Positions 1,511 to 27,200 of a DNA stretch of 64,000 nucleotides are shown here, piece after piece. Numbering within the stretch: position 1 is the stretch's first letter; each line of letters starts with the position of its first letter. The stretch spans positions 62,001 through 126,000 of the forward strand of contig NZ_JAFIDN010000002.1 of the NCBI RefSeq assembly GCF_017921895.1, written 5' to 3'. Made by a program: the position numbers and the translations under genes. The stretch is from Natronogracilivirga saccharolytica (GTDB lineage: Bacteria; Bacteroidota; Rhodothermia; Balneolales; Natronogracilivirgulaceae). The notes beneath the pieces were generated by a model. It worked only from the letters and a program-made list of their open reading frames with translations, did no database searches and was not told where the DNA came from.

Positions 1511-2244
1511 TGCGGTATTCCCTGTTGCTCTTTTTTGTTGGCCGGTTTCTGCAGCAATTCAATAAACTCGGTGGAGGAGTCTTCCAGATCGAAGATCATC
1601 CGGTTCATGCGGCCCAAAAGATAATTATAGAAGCCGTAAGCAATGATTCCGACGGCAAGTCCGGAAGCGGTTGTTATCAATGCTTCCCATATTCCGCCAG
1701 CCAGAACACTTGGATTCACATTGCCCTCGAGCGTCTGAATCTGCATGAACGCCTGAATCATACCGGTGACGGTACCAAGAAAACCAAGCAGCGGTGCCAC
1801 ACCGGCGATCGTAGCAAGCCAGTCCATTTTTTTCTCAAGGAAATGGACTTCCCGTTTTCCGGCATTTTTTATCGCATCGTCAATATCCTGTATTGGTCTG
1901 CCGAGCCGCTTGATACCCTGCTTCATTATCCGGGAAAAGGGCTTGTCCATATCATCACAATACTGAAGCGCCTGCCTCATCTCACCTTTTTTCAGCATAT
2001 CCTCAAGACTGTCGAGAAACCTCTGATTATCCATTACGGAGTTGGAAAGTACGCGCCATCGCTCGGCAATGACATAAATAGCAAGCAGCGACAGCAAGGT
2101 GATGGGAATCATCACAAACCCGCCCTCCGAGAGCATCTGCAAATAGGAAATTTCTTCTGAGGTGGCAGTAAGGGCTTCTAATGTATCTTCGGCAATGCCA
2201 TTTTGGAAAAGTAATACCGACAGATAAAGGGATACCGATGTCAT
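1507..2244 (-). CDS. exbB: MotA/TolQ/ExbB proton channel protein
   Basis: A 245-residue inner-membrane protein. It has an N-terminal hydrophobic start, a first helix at about 40-60 (GGFVMIPITLLSLLAIYVIAE), a cytoplasmic loop with MRQALQYCDDMDKPFSRIMKQGI, and the conserved MotA/ExbB core at about 140-215 (LATIAGVAPLLGFLGTVTGM, then EALITTASGLAVGIIAYGFYNYL). It is the pentameric channel of the ExbB-ExbD motor. It is the first of the three motor genes and lies 39 bp downstream of the HU/SPOR gene, so the two are probably co-transcribed. Lengths and motifs are standard. Confidence 0.92.
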   Translation of the reverse strand: MTSVSLYLSVLLFQNGIAEDTLEALTATSEEISYLQMLSEGGFVMIPITLLSLLAIYVIAERWRVLSNSVMDNQRFLDSLEDMLKKGEMRQALQYCDDMDKPFSRIMKQGIKRLGRPIQDIDDAIKNAGKREVHFLEKKMDWLATIAGVAPLLGFLGTVTGMIQAFMQIQTLEGNVNPSVLAGGIWEALITTASGLAVGIIAYGFYNYLLGRMNRMIFDLEDSSTEFIELLQKPANKKEQQGIPQ

Positions 2245-2283
2245 GAAATACCGTTGTTGAGTTGGTGGGTTTTGTTGTTAGTA

Positions 2284-3678
2284 TTAACGAATTCTGATGA
2301 TAAAATTATTGCTCCGGTAGGGTTCGGGAAGTTCGGAGATGGCCTCCTCTGCTTCTGATACGGTTTCAAACTGTCCGATACCTACCCGCCAGCGCTGGTT
2401 GCCGTCCGGCAGTGTCGCCTGCCATAATGTTGCCTTGAAATCCCGTTCTGCAAGACGATCACGTTCAATCTGTGCCTTTTTCTCATTGTGAAGGGAGTGA
2501 ACCACGATCGTATATGCTCCGATAAGTACCTCTTCTTCCGGTCCGGTCAGACCAAATGGCAGTTGATCATCGAGATCCGCTTCGGCAGGCTCCGGTTCTT
2601 CAGGTACCGGCTCCGGCTCTTCTTCGGCAGGCTCCGGTTCGGGCTCCGGCACCATTTCTTCCGGTTCATCGGCTTCCTCTTCCTCATCCGGCAGGGGGCC
2701 AACCTGATGTTCTGACGGCTCATCCTGAAGTGCTGCAACATCTTCCTGTTCCCGGCGTTGCTCCTGCTCATCGCGGAACTGCCGGTCCAGCTGAAGTCCG
2801 TCAAAATGAAAATAGAGTAAAATTGCCGCAATGATCACCGCAGCAGCCGGTATGAACCAGATGGCATAGCTCTTTTTCTCTTTGGCATCTCCACCGGACT
2901 CCTTTTTGCCGGTTTTGGATTTTTTTCCTGAGGAAGCCGTTATTTTCGGGATATCTTCCCCTTCAGAAGCTTTCCCTGATTCTTCTCCGGACAGTTCAAA
3001 CGGATCCTCTTCGGATTCCTTTTCAAGTTCCTGCTCAAGTTCTTTCCCAATTTCCTCCTCCGTTTCCCTGACAGGATCTTGCTCCGGTTCTATGCCAGGC
3101 TCCTCCCCTGGATCCTCATCAGGCTCCGTTTCGGGCTCCTCCTGAAATTCTTTCGGGAGCTCTTCCTGGTGCTCTTCTCCGGATTCCTCCATTTTTTCTT
3201 TTTCCGGTTCCTCAGGGAATTCCTCCCGGGATTCCTCCGGATCTTCGGTTTCAGCCCCTGACGCCTCTTCCCCCGGGTCTTTGGAGCGTGGGGTAGTCAT
3301 TTCCTGCTCGTCTTTCGAAGTGGCTTTTTCCGGGGACTCCTCCTCTTCCGCAATACCGAACGGATCATCCTCTTGCCCGGCTTCTTCACCCTTATCTTTT
3401 TCCTGAATTTTCCGGAGAAAAGAGGGGGAAACCTCAATCGGATTCATTCCTGCGTATTTATGGTTTACTTCAATAGCAAGCTTTTCATCCGGCACAAACT
3501 CAATACCGGGCCCTTTTTTCCTGAACGTTCCCAATCCCGGTACATGGCTGGTTTCCTTCTCCCCTGTTTCTTTAATTATATTTTCTATCCATGCATCGAA
3601 AGCAGCTTCCGCATCTTTGGCCTCAACACCCAGGGATTTTGCAAGCTTGCTGATCAGCTCTTCATGTGATAGCTTCAT
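2284..3678 (-). CDS. HU-like domain / acidic linker / transmembrane / SPOR-domain protein
   Basis: A 464-residue mosaic. Residues 1-90 resemble an HU/IHF-like fold (MKLSHEELISKLAKSLGV, VPGLGTFRKK, MNPIEVSPSFLRKI). About 95-255 is a Glu/Pro/Asp-rich low-complexity linker. About 272-292 is one membrane helix (AIWFIPAAAVIIAAILLYF). A second Pro/Glu-rich spacer follows, and about 385-464 is a SPOR-type domain (YTIVVHSLHNEKKAQIERD, WRVGIGQFETVSEAEEAI). SPOR domains bind denuded peptidoglycan at division sites, so the C-terminus should be periplasmic and the HU-like part cytoplasmic. Such HU/SPOR fusions are known in Bacteroidota-like genomes without a settled role. It follows a second small HU-like gene by 7 bp and precedes exbB. 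A link between nucleoid, wall and envelope motor is inference. Confidence 0.75.
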   Translation of the reverse strand: MKLSHEELISKLAKSLGVEAKDAEAAFDAWIENIIKETGEKETSHVPGLGTFRKKGPGIEFVPDEKLAIEVNHKYAGMNPIEVSPSFLRKIQEKDKGEEAGQEDDPFGIAEEEESPEKATSKDEQEMTTPRSKDPGEEASGAETEDPEESREEFPEEPEKEKMEESGEEHQEELPKEFQEEPETEPDEDPGEEPGIEPEQDPVRETEEEIGKELEQELEKESEEDPFELSGEESGKASEGEDIPKITASSGKKSKTGKKESGGDAKEKKSYAIWFIPAAAVIIAAILLYFHFDGLQLDRQFRDEQEQRREQEDVAALQDEPSEHQVGPLPDEEEEADEPEEMVPEPEPEPAEEEPEPVPEEPEPAEADLDDQLPFGLTGPEEEVLIGAYTIVVHSLHNEKKAQIERDRLAERDFKATLWQATLPDGNQRWRVGIGQFETVSEAEEAISELPEPYRSNNFIIRIR

Positions 3679-14826: not shown

Positions 14827-15702
14827 CTACTTTTCTTCTTTATCTGAAGAGCTTTCCGCTGCAGAGTCATCCTTGTCCTTGGGCTCTTCTTCAGCCTTTT
14901 TTTCTGAGTCTGCCTTCTTCTCTTCATTGCCGGAAGCATCCTTTTCTGCTTTTTTCTCAGCCTCTTTCGGCTTTTCTTCCTTCTTAGCTTCCGCTTCAGC
15001 TTCCTTGCTGTCAGCTTTCTCTTCCTTTGCTTCTTCAGCTTTGCCGACATCAGCTTCTTTCTTCTCAGCAGGAGCTTCTGCTTTTTTCTCGGCTTTTTCC
15101 TTCTTTTCTTCCTTCTTTTCTTCCGCTTCAGCTTCCTTGCTGTCAGCTTGCTCTTCCTTTACTTCTTCGGCTTTACCGGCATCAGCTTCTTCTTTCTTTT
15201 CTGCAGCAACTTCTTCACCCTTCTCTGCGGCAGCCTCTTCTGCTTTTTTGGCTTCGGCAGCGGCTTTAGCTTTTTCAGCCTCTTCCTTAGCCCTTGCTTC
15301 CTGTTCTTTTTTGAACTTCTCTTCTTCCGCTTTCAGCTGCTGCTTCATACGCTCAGCCTTGGTGACTGCTTTCTTTTCACCTTTCTGGCGTTCTTCTTTC
15401 CACTGAGAGATAGTCTGTTCGATTTCATCTTCAGACTTTCCCCATCTTTCCAGATGAAGACGATAGAAGATACCTTCCTTTTTGAGGATGGACCGAACGG
15501 TATCTGTGGGCTGCGCACCGTTTTTGAGCCAGTATATGACTCTGTCGGTTTCAAGTTTTTTCAGTGACGGTTCCTGAGTCGGGTTAAATCTTCCCAGGTC
15601 CTCAATTATCCTTCCGTCGCGCTTGGTTCTCATGTCAGCTGCGACGATATGATAATAAGGCAACCGTTTTCTGCCGTGTCGTTGTAATCTTAGTCTAACC
15701 AA
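14827..15702 (-). CDS. rpsP: 30S ribosomal protein S16 with a very long charged C-terminal extension
   Basis: Residues 1-85 are ordinary S16 (MVRLRLQRHGRKRLPYYHIV, DMRTKRDGRIIEDLGRFNP, RVIYWLKNGAQPTDTVRSIL). After that comes a tail of about 200 residues made almost wholly of Lys, Glu and Ala. It contains a tandem duplication of about 32 residues (blocks with GKAEEVKEEQADSKEAEAE and GKAEEAKEEKADSKEAEAE) and should form long charged helices. Bacteroidota-like S16 proteins often carry a short extension, but the E. coli protein is only 82 residues and 291 is exceptional. The gene sits between ffh and rimM. The tail's function is unknown. Confidence 0.95.
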   Translation of the reverse strand: MVRLRLQRHGRKRLPYYHIVAADMRTKRDGRIIEDLGRFNPTQEPSLKKLETDRVIYWLKNGAQPTDTVRSILKKEGIFYRLHLERWGKSEDEIEQTISQWKEERQKGEKKAVTKAERMKQQLKAEEEKFKKEQEARAKEEAEKAKAAAEAKKAEEAAAEKGEEVAAEKKEEADAGKAEEVKEEQADSKEAEAEEKKEEKKEKAEKKAEAPAEKKEADVGKAEEAKEEKADSKEAEAEAKKEEKPKEAEKKAEKDASGNEEKKADSEKKAEEEPKDKDDSAAESSSDKEEK

Positions 15703-22409: not shown

Positions 22410-23168
22410 CTAAATAACCACCTCAAGCTGATCAAATGCAAGCTGTACATTACCGGGCAGCCGTCCGGATATTTCCTCATGGCGGACAAAGGGCGATATA
22501 TGTATCAGATATGTGCGCCCGACATTCAGTTTGTTCGCAACTTCGCAGGCTTCCGGAATGGTAAAATGCGTAGGATGGGACGGCTGCCAGCGCAATCCGC
22601 TCATTACAAGTATTTTTGATCCGTTGATTTTTTCGGCCGTTTCAGGAGGGATATAGCTGACATCGGTAATGTAAGAAATATCATTTATGCGAAAACCCAG
22701 CACATCCATATTCCCGTGTTTAACAGGCAGTGGTGTAATAACACAGTCACCGTCAATTATTTCATCGCTCCATTTTCTAAATACAATATCAACCGACCCG
22801 GGGGTTTTGTCTGGTGGAAACATGTAAGAGTATCGTTTCCGGATAGCCGTTTCCGTCCTGTTGTCGGTATAAACGGGTATTGGCTGCTTTTGAGCGTAAT
22901 TATAGGCCCTCAGATCATCCAGTCCGCCGATATGGTCTGTATGTTCATGAGTAATGAATAGTGCGTCAATACGTCTGATTCCGGCTCTGAGTGTCTGAAG
23001 CCTGAACTCGGGACCAATATCGATTACAAAGGATCTTTTGCCGGATTGAATCCATGCAGAACATCTGTACCTGTTATCCCTGGGATCTGATCCTCCGTTT
23101 TCTGTTCCAAAGCCCCCGGCCACAGGCACACCCATTGAAGTCCCGGTTCCTAAAAATGTCAACTTCAT
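22410..23168 (-). CDS. MBL-fold metallo-hydrolase (PhnP-like)
   Basis: A 252-residue metallo-beta-lactamase-fold protein. Metal-binding motifs are FITHEHTDHIGGLDDLRAYN (HxHxDH), PVKHGNMDVLGF, SYITDVSYIP and a late His in YLIHISPFVRHEE. The start MKLTFLGTGTSMGVPVAGG and the RCSAW segment resemble PhnP and related cyclic phosphodiesterases of the RNase Z class. The substrate is unknown and no C-P lyase genes are near. It overlaps the upstream small gene by 4 bp. Confidence 0.85.
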   Translation of the reverse strand: MKLTFLGTGTSMGVPVAGGFGTENGGSDPRDNRYRCSAWIQSGKRSFVIDIGPEFRLQTLRAGIRRIDALFITHEHTDHIGGLDDLRAYNYAQKQPIPVYTDNRTETAIRKRYSYMFPPDKTPGSVDIVFRKWSDEIIDGDCVITPLPVKHGNMDVLGFRINDISYITDVSYIPPETAEKINGSKILVMSGLRWQPSHPTHFTIPEACEVANKLNVGRTYLIHISPFVRHEEISGRLPGNVQLAFDQLEVVI

Positions 23169-23446
23169 GAATTGGCCTTCTCTTTTTTAAATATGCGCTC
23201 CATCCATTTGTCCAGTTCCTTTCTGACTGCCGGCTTGATATAGATGTCGTTGATATCTCTTTCAGATAAAAACCGCACCATTTGTCCGATATGGAATTCT
23301 GCTGGGTAATTCTTATTTATCATTACAATTTTGTCACCATCCAGCACACAAAAGTCCCCCTGGAAACTTCCCTTCTCCTTTCGGAGCTGATATCCCAGAT
23401 CCTCTATGATTTTTTCCAGTTCAGATTGGAATCTCTCTGTTTTCAT
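23165..23446 (-). CDS. Conserved small hypothetical protein
   Basis: A 93-residue cytoplasmic protein (MKTERFQSELEKIIEDLGYQ to a Lys-rich end) with a central GDFCVLDGDKIVMINKNYPA and HIGQMVRFLSERDINDIYIK. It has no membrane segment and I do not recognise a family of known function. The start at 23446 was taken because the repeat units upstream each end at a similar ATGAA. A second in-frame start at 23503 (ATGATTAAA) would add 19 residues encoded by the repeat and cannot be excluded, because it overlaps the stop of a micro-ORF by ATGA. It overlaps the MBL gene by 4 bp. Confidence 0.72.
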   Translation of the reverse strand: MKTERFQSELEKIIEDLGYQLRKEKGSFQGDFCVLDGDKIVMINKNYPAEFHIGQMVRFLSERDINDIYIKPAVRKELDKWMERIFKKEKANS

Positions 23447-23546
23447 GTGTTTAAAATTTTTGGTTAAGTGGACACATGCAATTCTAGGACCGGTTTTAAT
23501 CATGCGCCTGTGTGTCCTGACGCCCGTCCGGTCATGCTCATTTCAT
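23447..23546 (-). repeat. Leader repeat unit 1 (100 bp), adjoining the small gene
   Basis: Read toward the gene, the unit starts at a relic ATGAAATG (ATG at 23546) and ends at the true ATG at 23446. It contains GCATGACC, a hairpin (CCGGAC with GTCAGG, one mismatch), ACACAGGCGCATGATTAAA, and an AT-rich end AAATTTTAAACAC. A micro-ORF (23500-23535, MTGRASGHTGA) ends in a TGA that overlaps the ATG of a second frame running into the gene. Unit 2 follows directly with the same plan. Confidence 0.75.
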
Positions 23547-23660
23547 GTGTTTATAATTTGTGATTCTGACGTCACATGTAGTACCCATGTTGGCTATAAT
23601 CATGCTCCTGTGTGACGGTAAGCCGCCATGGGCATTTCATCTGTTTAAAATTTTTCCGGA
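23547..23660 (-). repeat. Leader repeat unit 2 (94 bp) plus the start of a third copy
   Basis: Unit 2 spans 23547-23640. On the plus strand both units begin TTTCATGTGTTTA, share TAATCATG.(G/T)CCTGTGTG in the middle, and end CATG..CA. The hairpin of unit 2 is GACGG/CCGCC with a four-base loop, different in sequence from unit 1. Its micro-ORF (23600-23629) reads MAAYRHTGA, two codons shorter than in unit 1, exactly the 6-bp length difference between units. A partial third copy (TTTCATCTGTTTAAAATTTT) starts at 23636. Confidence 0.72.
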
Positions 23661-25033: not shown

Positions 25034-25190
25034 TTTGTAACGCGCTCATAAACACCTGACCTGAACGTTACCTATGGCATCTCTGGTTGTCACTGTATAA
25101 ATCGACCAGCACCGGGTACTACTTTTGCAATCTGAGCCAGGGCCTGTAAAACCCGGATTAATTAGAATATAAATCGAAACTCTTTAACAC

Positions 25191-25310
25191 ATGAAATGTC
25201 CATGACCGGGCCGACGCCCGGACACACAGGCGTATGATTAAATACTGTCATGGCATTTCACTTCGTGACCTTCGGTTCATCTGACTGTATAAATCCAAAA
25301 TTCTAAACTG
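25191..25310 (+). repeat. Leader repeat unit in front of mnmG (120 bp)
   Basis: It begins at a relic ATGAAATG (25191) and ends just before the mnmG ATG (25311). It shares with the 23.5-kb units CCATGACC, a perfect hairpin (CCGGGC-CGAC-GCCCGG), GACACACAGGCGTATGATTAAA and an AT-rich AAATC-AAA-TTCTAAAC lead into the start. The micro-ORF at 25202-25237 reads MTGPTPGHTGV, and its TGA overlaps the ATG of a second one (25234-25284, 16 codons). ACTGTATAAATC occurs at about 25091 and again at about 25283, so older duplication is possible. The orientation relative to the downstream gene matches the other copies. Confidence 0.72.
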
Positions 25311-27200
25311 ATGAAAAGCAGTATGCTACACCCTCAATACGATGTCATTGTAGTTGGAGGAGGACATGCCGGTGCTGAAGCAGCGGCTGCTTCCGGAAGA
25401 ATGGGGTGCAGCACATTGCTGATTTCTCTGAATCTGAATGCAATAGCACAAATGTCCTGCAATCCTGCGATAGGAGGCGTGGCCAAGGGTCAGCTTGTCA
25501 GAGAAATCGATGCCCTTGGAGGCATCATGGGTGCTGTTGCTGATTCTTCCGGTGTTCAGTTCAGGATGCTTAACAGAAGCAAAGGGCCCGCCATGTGGAG
25601 TCCGCGTGCCCAAAGTGACCGAATGCTCTATGCACAGCATATCAGAGAGAAACTTGAAGAAATACCAACCCTGCACATGAGACAGGACAGTGTTGTCGGG
25701 TTGCTGACTGATTCCGGCTCAGTAAATGGAGTGGTCACCCAAAGCGGACAACACATACCCGGCAAAGCTGTAATTCTGACCAACGGTACTTTTCTGAACG
25801 GCCTTATACATATTGGCGAAAAGAACTTTGGCGGAGGCCGTTCCGGAGAACGGGCTTCCGTTGGCATTACTGAAAATCTCGAGCAGCTTGGTTTTGAATC
25901 GGGCCGCCTTAAGACCGGCACCCCGCCGCGACTGGACGGCCGCACCATCGACTTCGAAAAACTTGAGATTCAATACGGGGATGATGAGCCCACGCCTTTT
26001 TCTTATCTGACAAAATCAATCCCTGACAAAGACAAGCAGTTGACTTGCTGGATTGCCTATACCACCCCTGCCGTTCATGAAGTTTTAAAAAGTGGTTTTG
26101 ATCGCAGCCCCATGTTCAACGGACGCATCACCTCCACGGGCCCCAGGTACTGCCCCTCTATTGAAGACAAAATCAATCGTTTTGCTGAAAGGGACAGACA
26201 TCAGCTTTTTGTTGAGCCGGAAGGCTGGAATACTTATGAAATATACCTTAACGGATTTTCTACCAGCCTTCCCGAGGATACACAGTACCAGGCGCTTCGA
26301 ACCATCCCCGGATTTGAAGAAGTTGTTATGATCCGGCCCGGATATGCTATTGAATACGATTACTTTCCGCCCCACCAGATCAACAGAAGCATGGAAACCA
26401 AGCTGCTAAGCAGTCTTTATTTTGCCGGTCAAATAAACGGCACTACAGGATACGAAGAAGCGGCAAGTCAGGGTTTAATGGCCGGCATCAACGCAGCCAG
26501 AAAAATTCAGGGTAAGGAGGAGATTGTTCTCAAGCGATCAGAAGCCTATATCGGTGTACTGATTGATGATTTGGTAAACAAGGGTACGGAAGAACCCTAC
26601 CGCATGTTCACTTCAAGAGCAGAACACCGCATTCTCTTACGGCAAGATAATGCTGATTTAAGACTCACTCCATTATCCCGTGATATAGGACTTGCCACTG
26701 AAACCCGTATAAATGATTTTGCAAGAAAGGAAACTGAAATCTCAAAGCTGAAAGAGTTTCTTTCTGATTACAGTGTCCGTCCTGAAAAATTCAATTTACT
26801 GCTTGAACACAAACAACAGGCTCCTTTAAAGCAGAGCCAAAAGCTGCCCAAGCTTATCACCAGGCCGCACCTTGGCCTTAATGAGCTTTTTGATCATGAC
26901 CCCGAACTCACAGAGGGCGTTTTTTCTATTACTAAAAACCCACTGGTTATTGAACAGGTTGAAATACAGTTCAAGTATGAAGGCTATATCCAAAAAGAGC
27001 ACGAGATGGTCCGTCAAATTTCTGAAAAAGAAAATATGTCCATTCCGGAATCTATTGATTACTCCAAAATTCAAAGCCTTTCCAGTGAAGGCCGCCAGAA
27101 ACTGCAGAAAGTACTACCAGAAACCATTGGCCAGGCCGGACGAATTAGCGGTGTTTCAGCTAGTGACATTGCGGTCCTCATGGTATACCTTAACCACTAA
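25311..27200 (+). CDS. mnmG: tRNA uridine-5-carboxymethylaminomethyl modification enzyme MnmG
   Basis: A 629-residue FAD protein that, with MnmE, modifies U34 of certain tRNAs. The Rossmann motif is YDVIVVGGGHAGAEAAAASG near the N-terminus. Further GidA signatures are MSCNPAIGGVAKGQLVREID, NGTFLNGLIHIGEKNFGGGR, LKTGTPPRLDGRTIDF and GPRYCPSIEDKI, then YDYFPPHQINRSMETK and GTTGYEEAASQGLMAGINAA. Length is standard. It is followed by rsmG, as in many bacteria, and its stop is immediately before a parS site. Its leader contains a copy of the repeat family described at 25191-25310. Confidence 0.97.
   Translation: MKSSMLHPQYDVIVVGGGHAGAEAAAASGRMGCSTLLISLNLNAIAQMSCNPAIGGVAKGQLVREIDALGGIMGAVADSSGVQFRMLNRSKGPAMWSPRAQSDRMLYAQHIREKLEEIPTLHMRQDSVVGLLTDSGSVNGVVTQSGQHIPGKAVILTNGTFLNGLIHIGEKNFGGGRSGERASVGITENLEQLGFESGRLKTGTPPRLDGRTIDFEKLEIQYGDDEPTPFSYLTKSIPDKDKQLTCWIAYTTPAVHEVLKSGFDRSPMFNGRITSTGPRYCPSIEDKINRFAERDRHQLFVEPEGWNTYEIYLNGFSTSLPEDTQYQALRTIPGFEEVVMIRPGYAIEYDYFPPHQINRSMETKLLSSLYFAGQINGTTGYEEAASQGLMAGINAARKIQGKEEIVLKRSEAYIGVLIDDLVNKGTEEPYRMFTSRAEHRILLRQDNADLRLTPLSRDIGLATETRINDFARKETEISKLKEFLSDYSVRPEKFNLLLEHKQQAPLKQSQKLPKLITRPHLGLNELFDHDPELTEGVFSITKNPLVIEQVEIQFKYEGYIQKEHEMVRQISEKENMSIPESIDYSKIQSLSSEGRQKLQKVLPETIGQAGRISGVSASDIAVLMVYLNH

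What the first reader, a model, noticed from the sequence alone, without database searches (positions are those of the whole stretch)
23447..23660. Tandem leader repeat: two full units and a partial third upstream of a small unknown gene
Units of 100 and 94 bp are repeated head to tail directly before the ATG at 23446. Each begins with a relic start-like ATGAAATG and ends at a start codon. Between these are a hairpin, TAATCATG-CCTGTGTG (plus strand) and an AT-rich tail. The hairpins have different bases but both pair (CCGGAC/GTCAGG, one mismatch; GACGG/CCGCC). The third copy is only its first about 24 bp. This is not a REP, CRISPR or known IS end, and I know of no description of it.
Basis: seen in the sequence. 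Interest (0 to 1): 0.75.

Follow-up and report, generated by a model that had tools for sequence, protein, structure and literature searches.

The report
Tiny jumping DNA targeting start codons
The repeat is one of at least a hundred copies of a roughly 100-letter jumping DNA that lands exactly at gene start codons in soda-lake bacteria, and it appears to borrow the machinery of a known RNA-guided transposon family (IS110).

Summary
Two head-to-tail units (23547-23640 and 23447-23546, minus strand) end exactly at the ATG of a small gene, and a third unit sits before mnmG (25191-25310, +). They belong to a dispersed family: at least 96 copies in this genome, 113 in a relative, and most genera of its Balneolales family. 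Two nested stems covary.

It is mobile. Species 88-90% identical show the same loci empty, with both flanks intact, or holding different units. The only target signal is ATGAAA, immediately 3' of the insertion. Target sites are gene starts more often than noncoding ATGAAA supply predicts (32/37 arrays; expected 44%). Downstream genes are unrelated housekeeping genes, so this is not a regulon.

The likely parent is an IS110-family transposon. The one full copy in this genome, and a 77%-identical relative in another genus, each begin with the unit's first ~53 bases (up to 39 bits, 5e-12). Unit size fits published IS110/IS1111 mini-elements moved in trans. Weak points: that transposase was not found in most unit-bearing draft genomes, and the units' right end is not clearly shared with the IS.

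Verdict: a start-codon-targeting, tandemly stacking, non-autonomous IS110-type element; a new variant of a known kind. A regulatory role is unproven.

The parts
23547..23640 (-). upstream unit, 94 bp (type A: outer stem TGCCCATG/CATGGGTA, inner hairpin GGCGG-CTTA-CCGTC, loop ACACAGGAGCATGATTATAG, AT-rich tail AATTATAAACAC)
   Evidence: 86 bits; 100% identical copies at two other loci of this genome
23447..23546 (-). downstream unit, 100 bp (type B: CATGACCGG... outer stem, degraded by ATG>CTA on the 3' side; inner hairpin CCGGAC..GTCAGG; tail AAAATTTTAAACAC)
   Evidence: 86 bits
23641..23655 (-). right-end remnant (AAAAATTTTAAACAG) of a further, decayed unit or look-alike native leader
   Evidence: exact pattern match at G000:C2:85636-85654
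23168..23446 (-). host gene whose start codon is the insertion target: 93-aa protein MKTERFQSELEK..., no Pfam or NCBIfam match
25191..25310 (+). third unit in the window, 120 bp (with the extra ~19-nt segment TTTCACTTCGTGACCTTCGGTT), directly before the start of mnmG
   Evidence: 102.5 bits; absent at the mnmG start of the 15 relatives whose upstream region was read
25166..25190 (+). right-end-like remnant (..AATATAAATCGAAACTCTTTAACAC) of an older, decayed unit before the mnmG unit
   Evidence: seen output; by eye only
25311..27200 (+). mnmG, second host gene in the window

Best explanation
The units are copies of a ~95-120-bp non-autonomous transposable element that inserts, in one orientation, immediately 5' of the hexamer ATGAAA, preferentially where that hexamer is a gene's start. 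Most likely it is a miniature derivative of an IS110-family element: it keeps the ~53-nt left end (outer-stem 5' arm, inner hairpin, ACACAGG-ATGATTA) plus a short right part ending in TTTTAAACA(C/G). It would be moved in trans, through a circle, by the IS110 transposase and its guide RNA. Each insertion leaves the host ATGAAA intact on the right and places an ATG at the new left boundary, so the site is regenerated and further units stack head to tail. The host gene keeps its ATG and receives the unit's A/T-rich tail as new translation-initiation context. The captured upstream ATG opens only a tiny closed frame. Shown: mobility, target, orientation, family size, structure covariation, shared left end with two IS110 copies. 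Inferred: movement in trans by IS110, the circle intermediate, RNA guidance, harmlessness to the host gene.
For: Mobility: filled versus empty orthologous sites with both flanks intact (L228/L246, L231/L250/L259, L225/L256, L203/L258, L223/L242); at other loci the sister species carries different units at the same ATG (L213/L248, L204/L252, L209/L254); identical units at unrelated loci. Target: 124 of 134 distinct right flanks start ATGAAA and no other flanking position carries clear information, against 32 of 324 genes whose first ATG is followed by AAA. Start preference: 103/137 arrays precede an ORF of 60 aa or more, own genome 32/37, against 44% expected from noncoding ATGAAA supply. Parent: the full IS110 element in L308 (416 aa, PF01548 + PF02371, NF033542 279 bits) starts at an ATGAAA in an array behind a unit, with a left end matching the unit model (26.6 bits, 5e-8); the G002 homologue (77% aa identity) does too (39.3 bits, 5e-12). 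Controls: no unit-free left-end hit above 10.5 bits in 400 kb, none in other IS110 loci. Published: mini-IS with ends of 29+16 or 50+46 bp move in trans with Tnp and seekRNA, without target duplication (PMC11187229). Frame: 121/122 units close the captured reading frame before the next ATG.
Against: PF01548 was found in only 3 of 20 family genomes, none in G014 (at least 113 units) or in G007 (98% complete, 20 contigs); multi-copy IS are often lost from metagenome bins, but G007 is a good assembly. The right end is not clearly shared: the unit's 3' stem arm and tail have no match in the IS, and the IS right end may be ...CCCCGTAG or ...TATAAACAC. Only two parent copies are known. The alternative that units are older and IS110 adopted their end is not excluded.
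Confidence: 0.75

Rival explanations
1. A mobile element of the same kind moved by an unrelated, unidentified recombinase (single-strand Y1/HUH type or other); the IS110 copies only share or captured its left end.
For: Insertion 3' of a short fixed sequence (TTTCAT on the bottom strand) without duplication and a subterminal hairpin resemble IS200/IS605-type insertion (inference). IS110 is not found in most unit-bearing genomes.
Against: Y1 transposases are missing from nearly all unit-bearing genomes and are found mostly in the unit-free G005, G006 and G009; the single own copy has unrelated ends. Reverse transcriptases are absent from 15 of 20 family genomes. No longer element with unit ends and another ORF was seen in the loci read or among the isolated right ends.
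Confidence: 0.17
2. A cis-regulatory RNA leader (riboswitch-like or translational control) spread upstream of genes and kept for regulation.
For: Position directly before starts; two covarying stems and a near-invariant loop; carried on the coding strand of the gene.
Against: Presence differs between sister species at the same gene; downstream genes share no function; no Rfam match; several copies lie at ATGAAA that are not gene starts.
Confidence: 0.05
3. A local tandem duplication of the leader of this one gene, without wider meaning.
For: Two units differ and end at the gene's ATG.
Against: At least 96 copies in this genome and many in related genomes.
Confidence: 0.01

Closest known systems
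IS110/IS1111-family insertion sequences with bridge RNA / seekRNA (IS621, ISEc11, ISEc21)
   Same: Left end shared with two IS110-family elements of the same bacterial family; one orientation, short specific target, no target duplication beyond the shared ATG(AA); unit length close to experimental mini-IS (PMC11187229).
   Different: No transposase or long noncoding region; ~100 bp; over 100 copies; stacks in tandem; target is essentially only the hexamer ATGAAA on one side.
IS900 (IS110 family, Mycobacterium avium subsp. paratuberculosis)
   Same: Target motif CATGNNNNNNTCTCCTT (PMC8141618), whose reverse complement reads as ribosome-binding site, spacer, ATG: an IS110-family element aimed at translation starts.
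   Different: Full-size IS; the motif lies on the ribosome-binding-site side of the ATG, whereas here it is the first two codons (ATGAAA).
MITEs
   Same: Short, noncoding, high-copy, derived from a transposon's ends.
   Different: No terminal inverted repeats at both ends and no classical target-site duplication.
REP elements mobilised by RAYT (TnpA-REP)
   Same: Dispersed intergenic hairpins near genes.
   Different: No Y1/RAYT gene in most carriers; always one orientation; insertion exactly at ATGAAA.
Integron attC arrays
   Same: Head-to-tail arrays of folded units inserted one behind another.
   Different: No cassette genes, many separate loci, different target; integrase not tested.

Membership tests
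IS110-family derivative (non-autonomous) | left end homologous to a full IS110 element | tested here: met
   26.6 and 39.3 bits at the first base of two IS110 elements; controls negative
IS110-family derivative (non-autonomous) | right end homologous to the same IS110 element | tested here: inconclusive
   right-half model does not hit the IS; only TATAAACAC before ATGAAA is shared, and the IS boundary is ambiguous
IS110-family derivative (non-autonomous) | full element inserted at the same target | tested here: met
   L308: the element starts at ATGAAAT inside an array and is followed by ATGAAA at both candidate right boundaries
IS110-family derivative (non-autonomous) | DEDD transposase present in carriers | tested here: inconclusive
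   G000 and G002 yes; most other carriers no hit
IS110-family derivative (non-autonomous) | movement by IS110 transposase with guide RNA | not testable with these tools
   needs a transposition assay
MITE (DDE type) | terminal inverted repeats at both ends | tested here: not met
   the stem joins the left end with the middle of the unit, not with the right end
MITE (DDE type) | target-site duplication | tested here: inconclusive
   ATG(AA) on both sides, but left ends ATGAAC or ATGCCC at ATGAAA targets argue against duplication of the hexamer
IS200/IS605-type or REP/RAYT | Y1 transposase in carriers | tested here: not met
   PF01797 absent from most carriers
Retroelement / group II intron derivative | reverse transcriptase in carriers | tested here: not met
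   PF00078 absent from most carriers
IS91/Y2 type | Y2 transposase | tested here: inconclusive
   the search rang nowhere, also not in the controls
Known RNA family | Rfam match | tested here: not met
Integron attC | IntI integrase and GTTRRRY core | not tested
   no such core seen by eye; integrase not searched

The most novel reading that the evidence does not exclude
The ~100-nt unit is itself transcribed into a small structured guide RNA (outer stem, inner hairpin, conserved ACACAGG-ATGATTA loop) that recruits an IS110-type transposase in trans and aims it at ATGAAA: a self-guiding miniature RNA-guided transposon specialised on start codons. The covarying outer stem exists in the units but not in the full IS, which would fit a unit-specific RNA role.
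Probability: 0.2. Interest if true: 0.85.

Novelty: new variant of a known kind. Interest (0 to 1): 0.62.

Why it matters
It would be a high-copy non-autonomous parasite of the IS110 (bridge RNA) family with an unusually safe target: the first two codons of genes. Because the unit regenerates its own target, it stacks, so one start codon can collect several leaders in series. That makes it a natural record of target choice by an RNA-guided recombinase, a system for asking which minimal ends suffice, and a warning for annotation: in this bacterial family many 5' regions and start codons are transposon-made. Non-autonomous IS110 derivatives and start-codon hexamer targeting were not found described in the papers searched; IS900 is a partial precedent.

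Tried and rejected
Rfam: nothing. Y1/HUH transposase as mobiliser: rejected, the pattern is opposite to the units. Reverse transcriptase: rejected. Y2: uninformative. Consensus fold on the MAFFT alignment: failed because the unit types differ by a one-base bulge and a 6-nt gap; replaced by a covariance model and an alignment-free arm-swap test. Autonomous copy with a long insert in the loci first fetched: none; found later through isolated right ends. Regulon: rejected, genes diverse. Viral carriage: none by exact pattern. mnmG orthologues were too diverged for a clean empty site, so the 88-90% identical trio G014/G015/G018 was used. Of the other isolated right ends, L317 is a 201-nt piece of the IS end; the rest look like decayed units or ordinary starts.

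Full report
WHAT IS THERE. On the minus strand of the window, 23640-23547 (94 bp) and 23546-23447 (100 bp) are two related units, head to tail, ending exactly at the ATG of a 93-aa gene of unknown family. A third unit, 25191-25310 (+), ends exactly at the ATG of mnmG.

SIZE OF THE FAMILY. BLAST with the 241-bp stretch gives 51 places in the own 3.75-Mb genome. A covariance model gives 96 units (a minimum). At least 113, 55 and 49 units were found in G014, G015 and G018. Of 60 relatives, 19 had hits: G000 and 16 others of the same family (genera g1-g5, g8 and g9, but not g6 or g7), plus single hits in two other families. Named records are Balneolales/Balneolaceae metagenome bins (isolate labels CSSed and DLM2; I take these to be soda-lake samples) and one contig in a 'Ca. 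Nealsonbacteria' bin with the same CSSed label, probably misbinned. No viral contig has the exact core pattern.

ANATOMY. A unit reads ATGAAAT(G/A)NN-CATGACCG | inner hairpin (CCGGG..CCCGG, GGCGG..CCGTC, AGAGC..GCTCT) | (G)ACACACAGGNGCATGATTANAN | CGGTCATG-NNATT | AT-rich tail ending AAATTTTAAACA(C/G), then the next ATG. Outer stem arms from the same unit pair better than arms swapped between units (-13.98 against -12.05 kcal/mol, 0 of 1000 permutations); so do the inner arms (-7.08 against -5.79, 0 of 1000). Counting on the model alignment gives 80 cells with changes on both sides against 33 in shuffles, and all slid versions do worse. Relatedness of copies inflates such tests, but several stem types are fully exchanged (TACCCATG/CATGGGTA; CATGACCG/CGGTCATG; CATGACAG/CTGTCATG).

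IT MOVES. Orthologous loci of G014, G015 and G018 (88-90% identical in mnmG) show filled and empty sites. For example, G014 reads ...gtaacttctctgcc-[unit]-ATGAAAAATG and G018 reads ...gtaacttctctgcc-ATGAAAAATG (L228/L246). At four loci another species has a different unit at the same ATG; at three of these the third species is empty. Identical 94-bp units lie at three unrelated loci of the own genome, one of them in this window. The mnmG unit is absent at the mnmG start of the 15 relatives whose upstream region was read.

TARGET. Of 134 distinct right flanks, 124 begin ATGAAA. Neither the following bases nor the left flank carry clear information. In a 400-kb sample, noncoding ATGAAA occurs 39 times at possible gene starts and 49 times elsewhere, yet 32 of 37 well-preserved arrays of the own genome, and 103 of 137 in all, precede an ORF of 60 aa or more (P about 1e-7 and 2e-13). 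Gene calls were crude, so the size of this preference is approximate. It may come from target choice or from selection against other insertions. Left boundaries almost always begin ATG (149 of about 170 scored), mostly ATGAA, sometimes ATGAAC or ATGCCC, so the shared direct repeat is ATG or ATGAA rather than a duplicated hexamer.

CONSEQUENCE FOR THE HOST GENE (inference). The gene keeps its ATG and receives the A/T-rich tail. The ATG captured at the upstream boundary opens a frame that closes inside the unit in 121 of 122 distinct units, usually after 2 or 4 codons. Downstream genes are diverse (sucC, purQ, mnmG, pheT, flagellar genes and others; names from my reading of the sequences), so no regulon.

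THE LIKELY PARENT. An end-pattern search of the genome (93 matches, reversed control 0) led to L308 (G000:C16). A unit there (1793-1893) is followed directly by an element that starts ATGAAATATTCATG..CGACACACAGGGGTATGATTATAA and carries a 416-aa ORF (1977-3227). The ORF matches DEDD_Tnp_IS110 and Transposase_20, NCBIfam IS110 RNA-guided transposase with 279 bits, and the IS621 and ISCro4 structures. A 3' noncoding region follows, up to an ATGAAA gene start. The unit's left-half model hits the first base of this element (26.6 bits, 5e-8) and of a 77%-identical IS110 in G002 (39.3 bits, 5e-12). In 400 kb no unit-free hit exceeds 10.5 bits, and other IS110 loci give none. A 201-nt, 99%-identical copy of the IS right part alone lies before another ATGAAA gene start (L317). 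Related IS110 elements of Bacillota have a vaguely similar left end, a hairpin followed by ACCACAGAANATGAAAAT; this is resemblance only.

WHY TRANS-MOBILISATION IS PLAUSIBLE. For IS110/IS1111 elements, mini-IS with ends of 29+16 bp or 50+46 bp move when the transposase and an NCR-derived seekRNA of about 60-150 nt are supplied separately, in one orientation and without target duplication (PMC11187229). A unit of ~57+40 bp is of that size. IS900, another IS110-family element, has the target motif CATGNNNNNNTCTCCTT (PMC8141618), i.e. a ribosome-binding site and start codon in reverse complement, so translation-start targeting has a precedent in the family.

WEAK POINTS. The transposase family was found in only three of 20 family genomes. 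The units' right end is not clearly that of the IS, whose own boundary is uncertain (CCCCG(T/C)AG or TATAAACAC). The direction of descent (IS to unit or unit to IS) is not proven. Y1 and RT alternatives were tested and fit worse; Y2 could not be judged.

VERDICT. A start-codon-targeting, self-stacking, non-autonomous transposable element family, most likely of IS110 type. It is new as a variant, not as a category.

Noticed in passing
L012:2001-2120, window 25191-25310 and others; L046, L231, L248: Some units carry an extra ~19-nt segment TTTCACTTCGTGACCTTCGGTTCA in the 3' part; its reverse complement ATGAACCGAAGGTCACGAAGTG occurs as an alternative 5' end of other units. A further alternative 5' end is ATGCCCAGTGAAACGCGTAAGCG (L204, L244).
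   Followed up: partly
L317:2992-3192 (-); L293 upstream of the IS110 left end: An 88-nt piece, ATGTTGCCTAAAGGTCG..CCCCG(T/C)AG (last codons plus 3' noncoding hairpin of the IS110 element, with a guide-like loop TTGAAATAT), occurs without the rest of the IS in two genomes, each time directly before ATGAAA.
   Followed up: partly
NZ_CP104065.1 (L328, L329): In an Alicyclobacillus dauci plasmid four copies of a related IS110 lie near each other, two of them adjacent, with a solitary copy of the ~100-nt right end behind one of them.
   Followed up: partly
L105; L060 (G026); L062 (G051): Units on single contigs of a 'Ca. Nealsonbacteria' bin and of two genomes from other Balneolales families; probably misbinned contigs.
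   Followed up: no
L039: Units look mosaic: the 5' half of one type joined to the 3' half of another, suggesting recombination between units.
   Followed up: no
window 14944-15191: A 132-bp tandem repeat (1.9 copies, 88% match), unrelated to the finding; possibly a repeat inside a coding sequence.
   Followed up: no
window 23168-23446 (-): 93-aa host gene without Pfam or NCBIfam match, overlapping the start of a metallo-beta-lactamase-fold gene (22410-23168).
   Followed up: no
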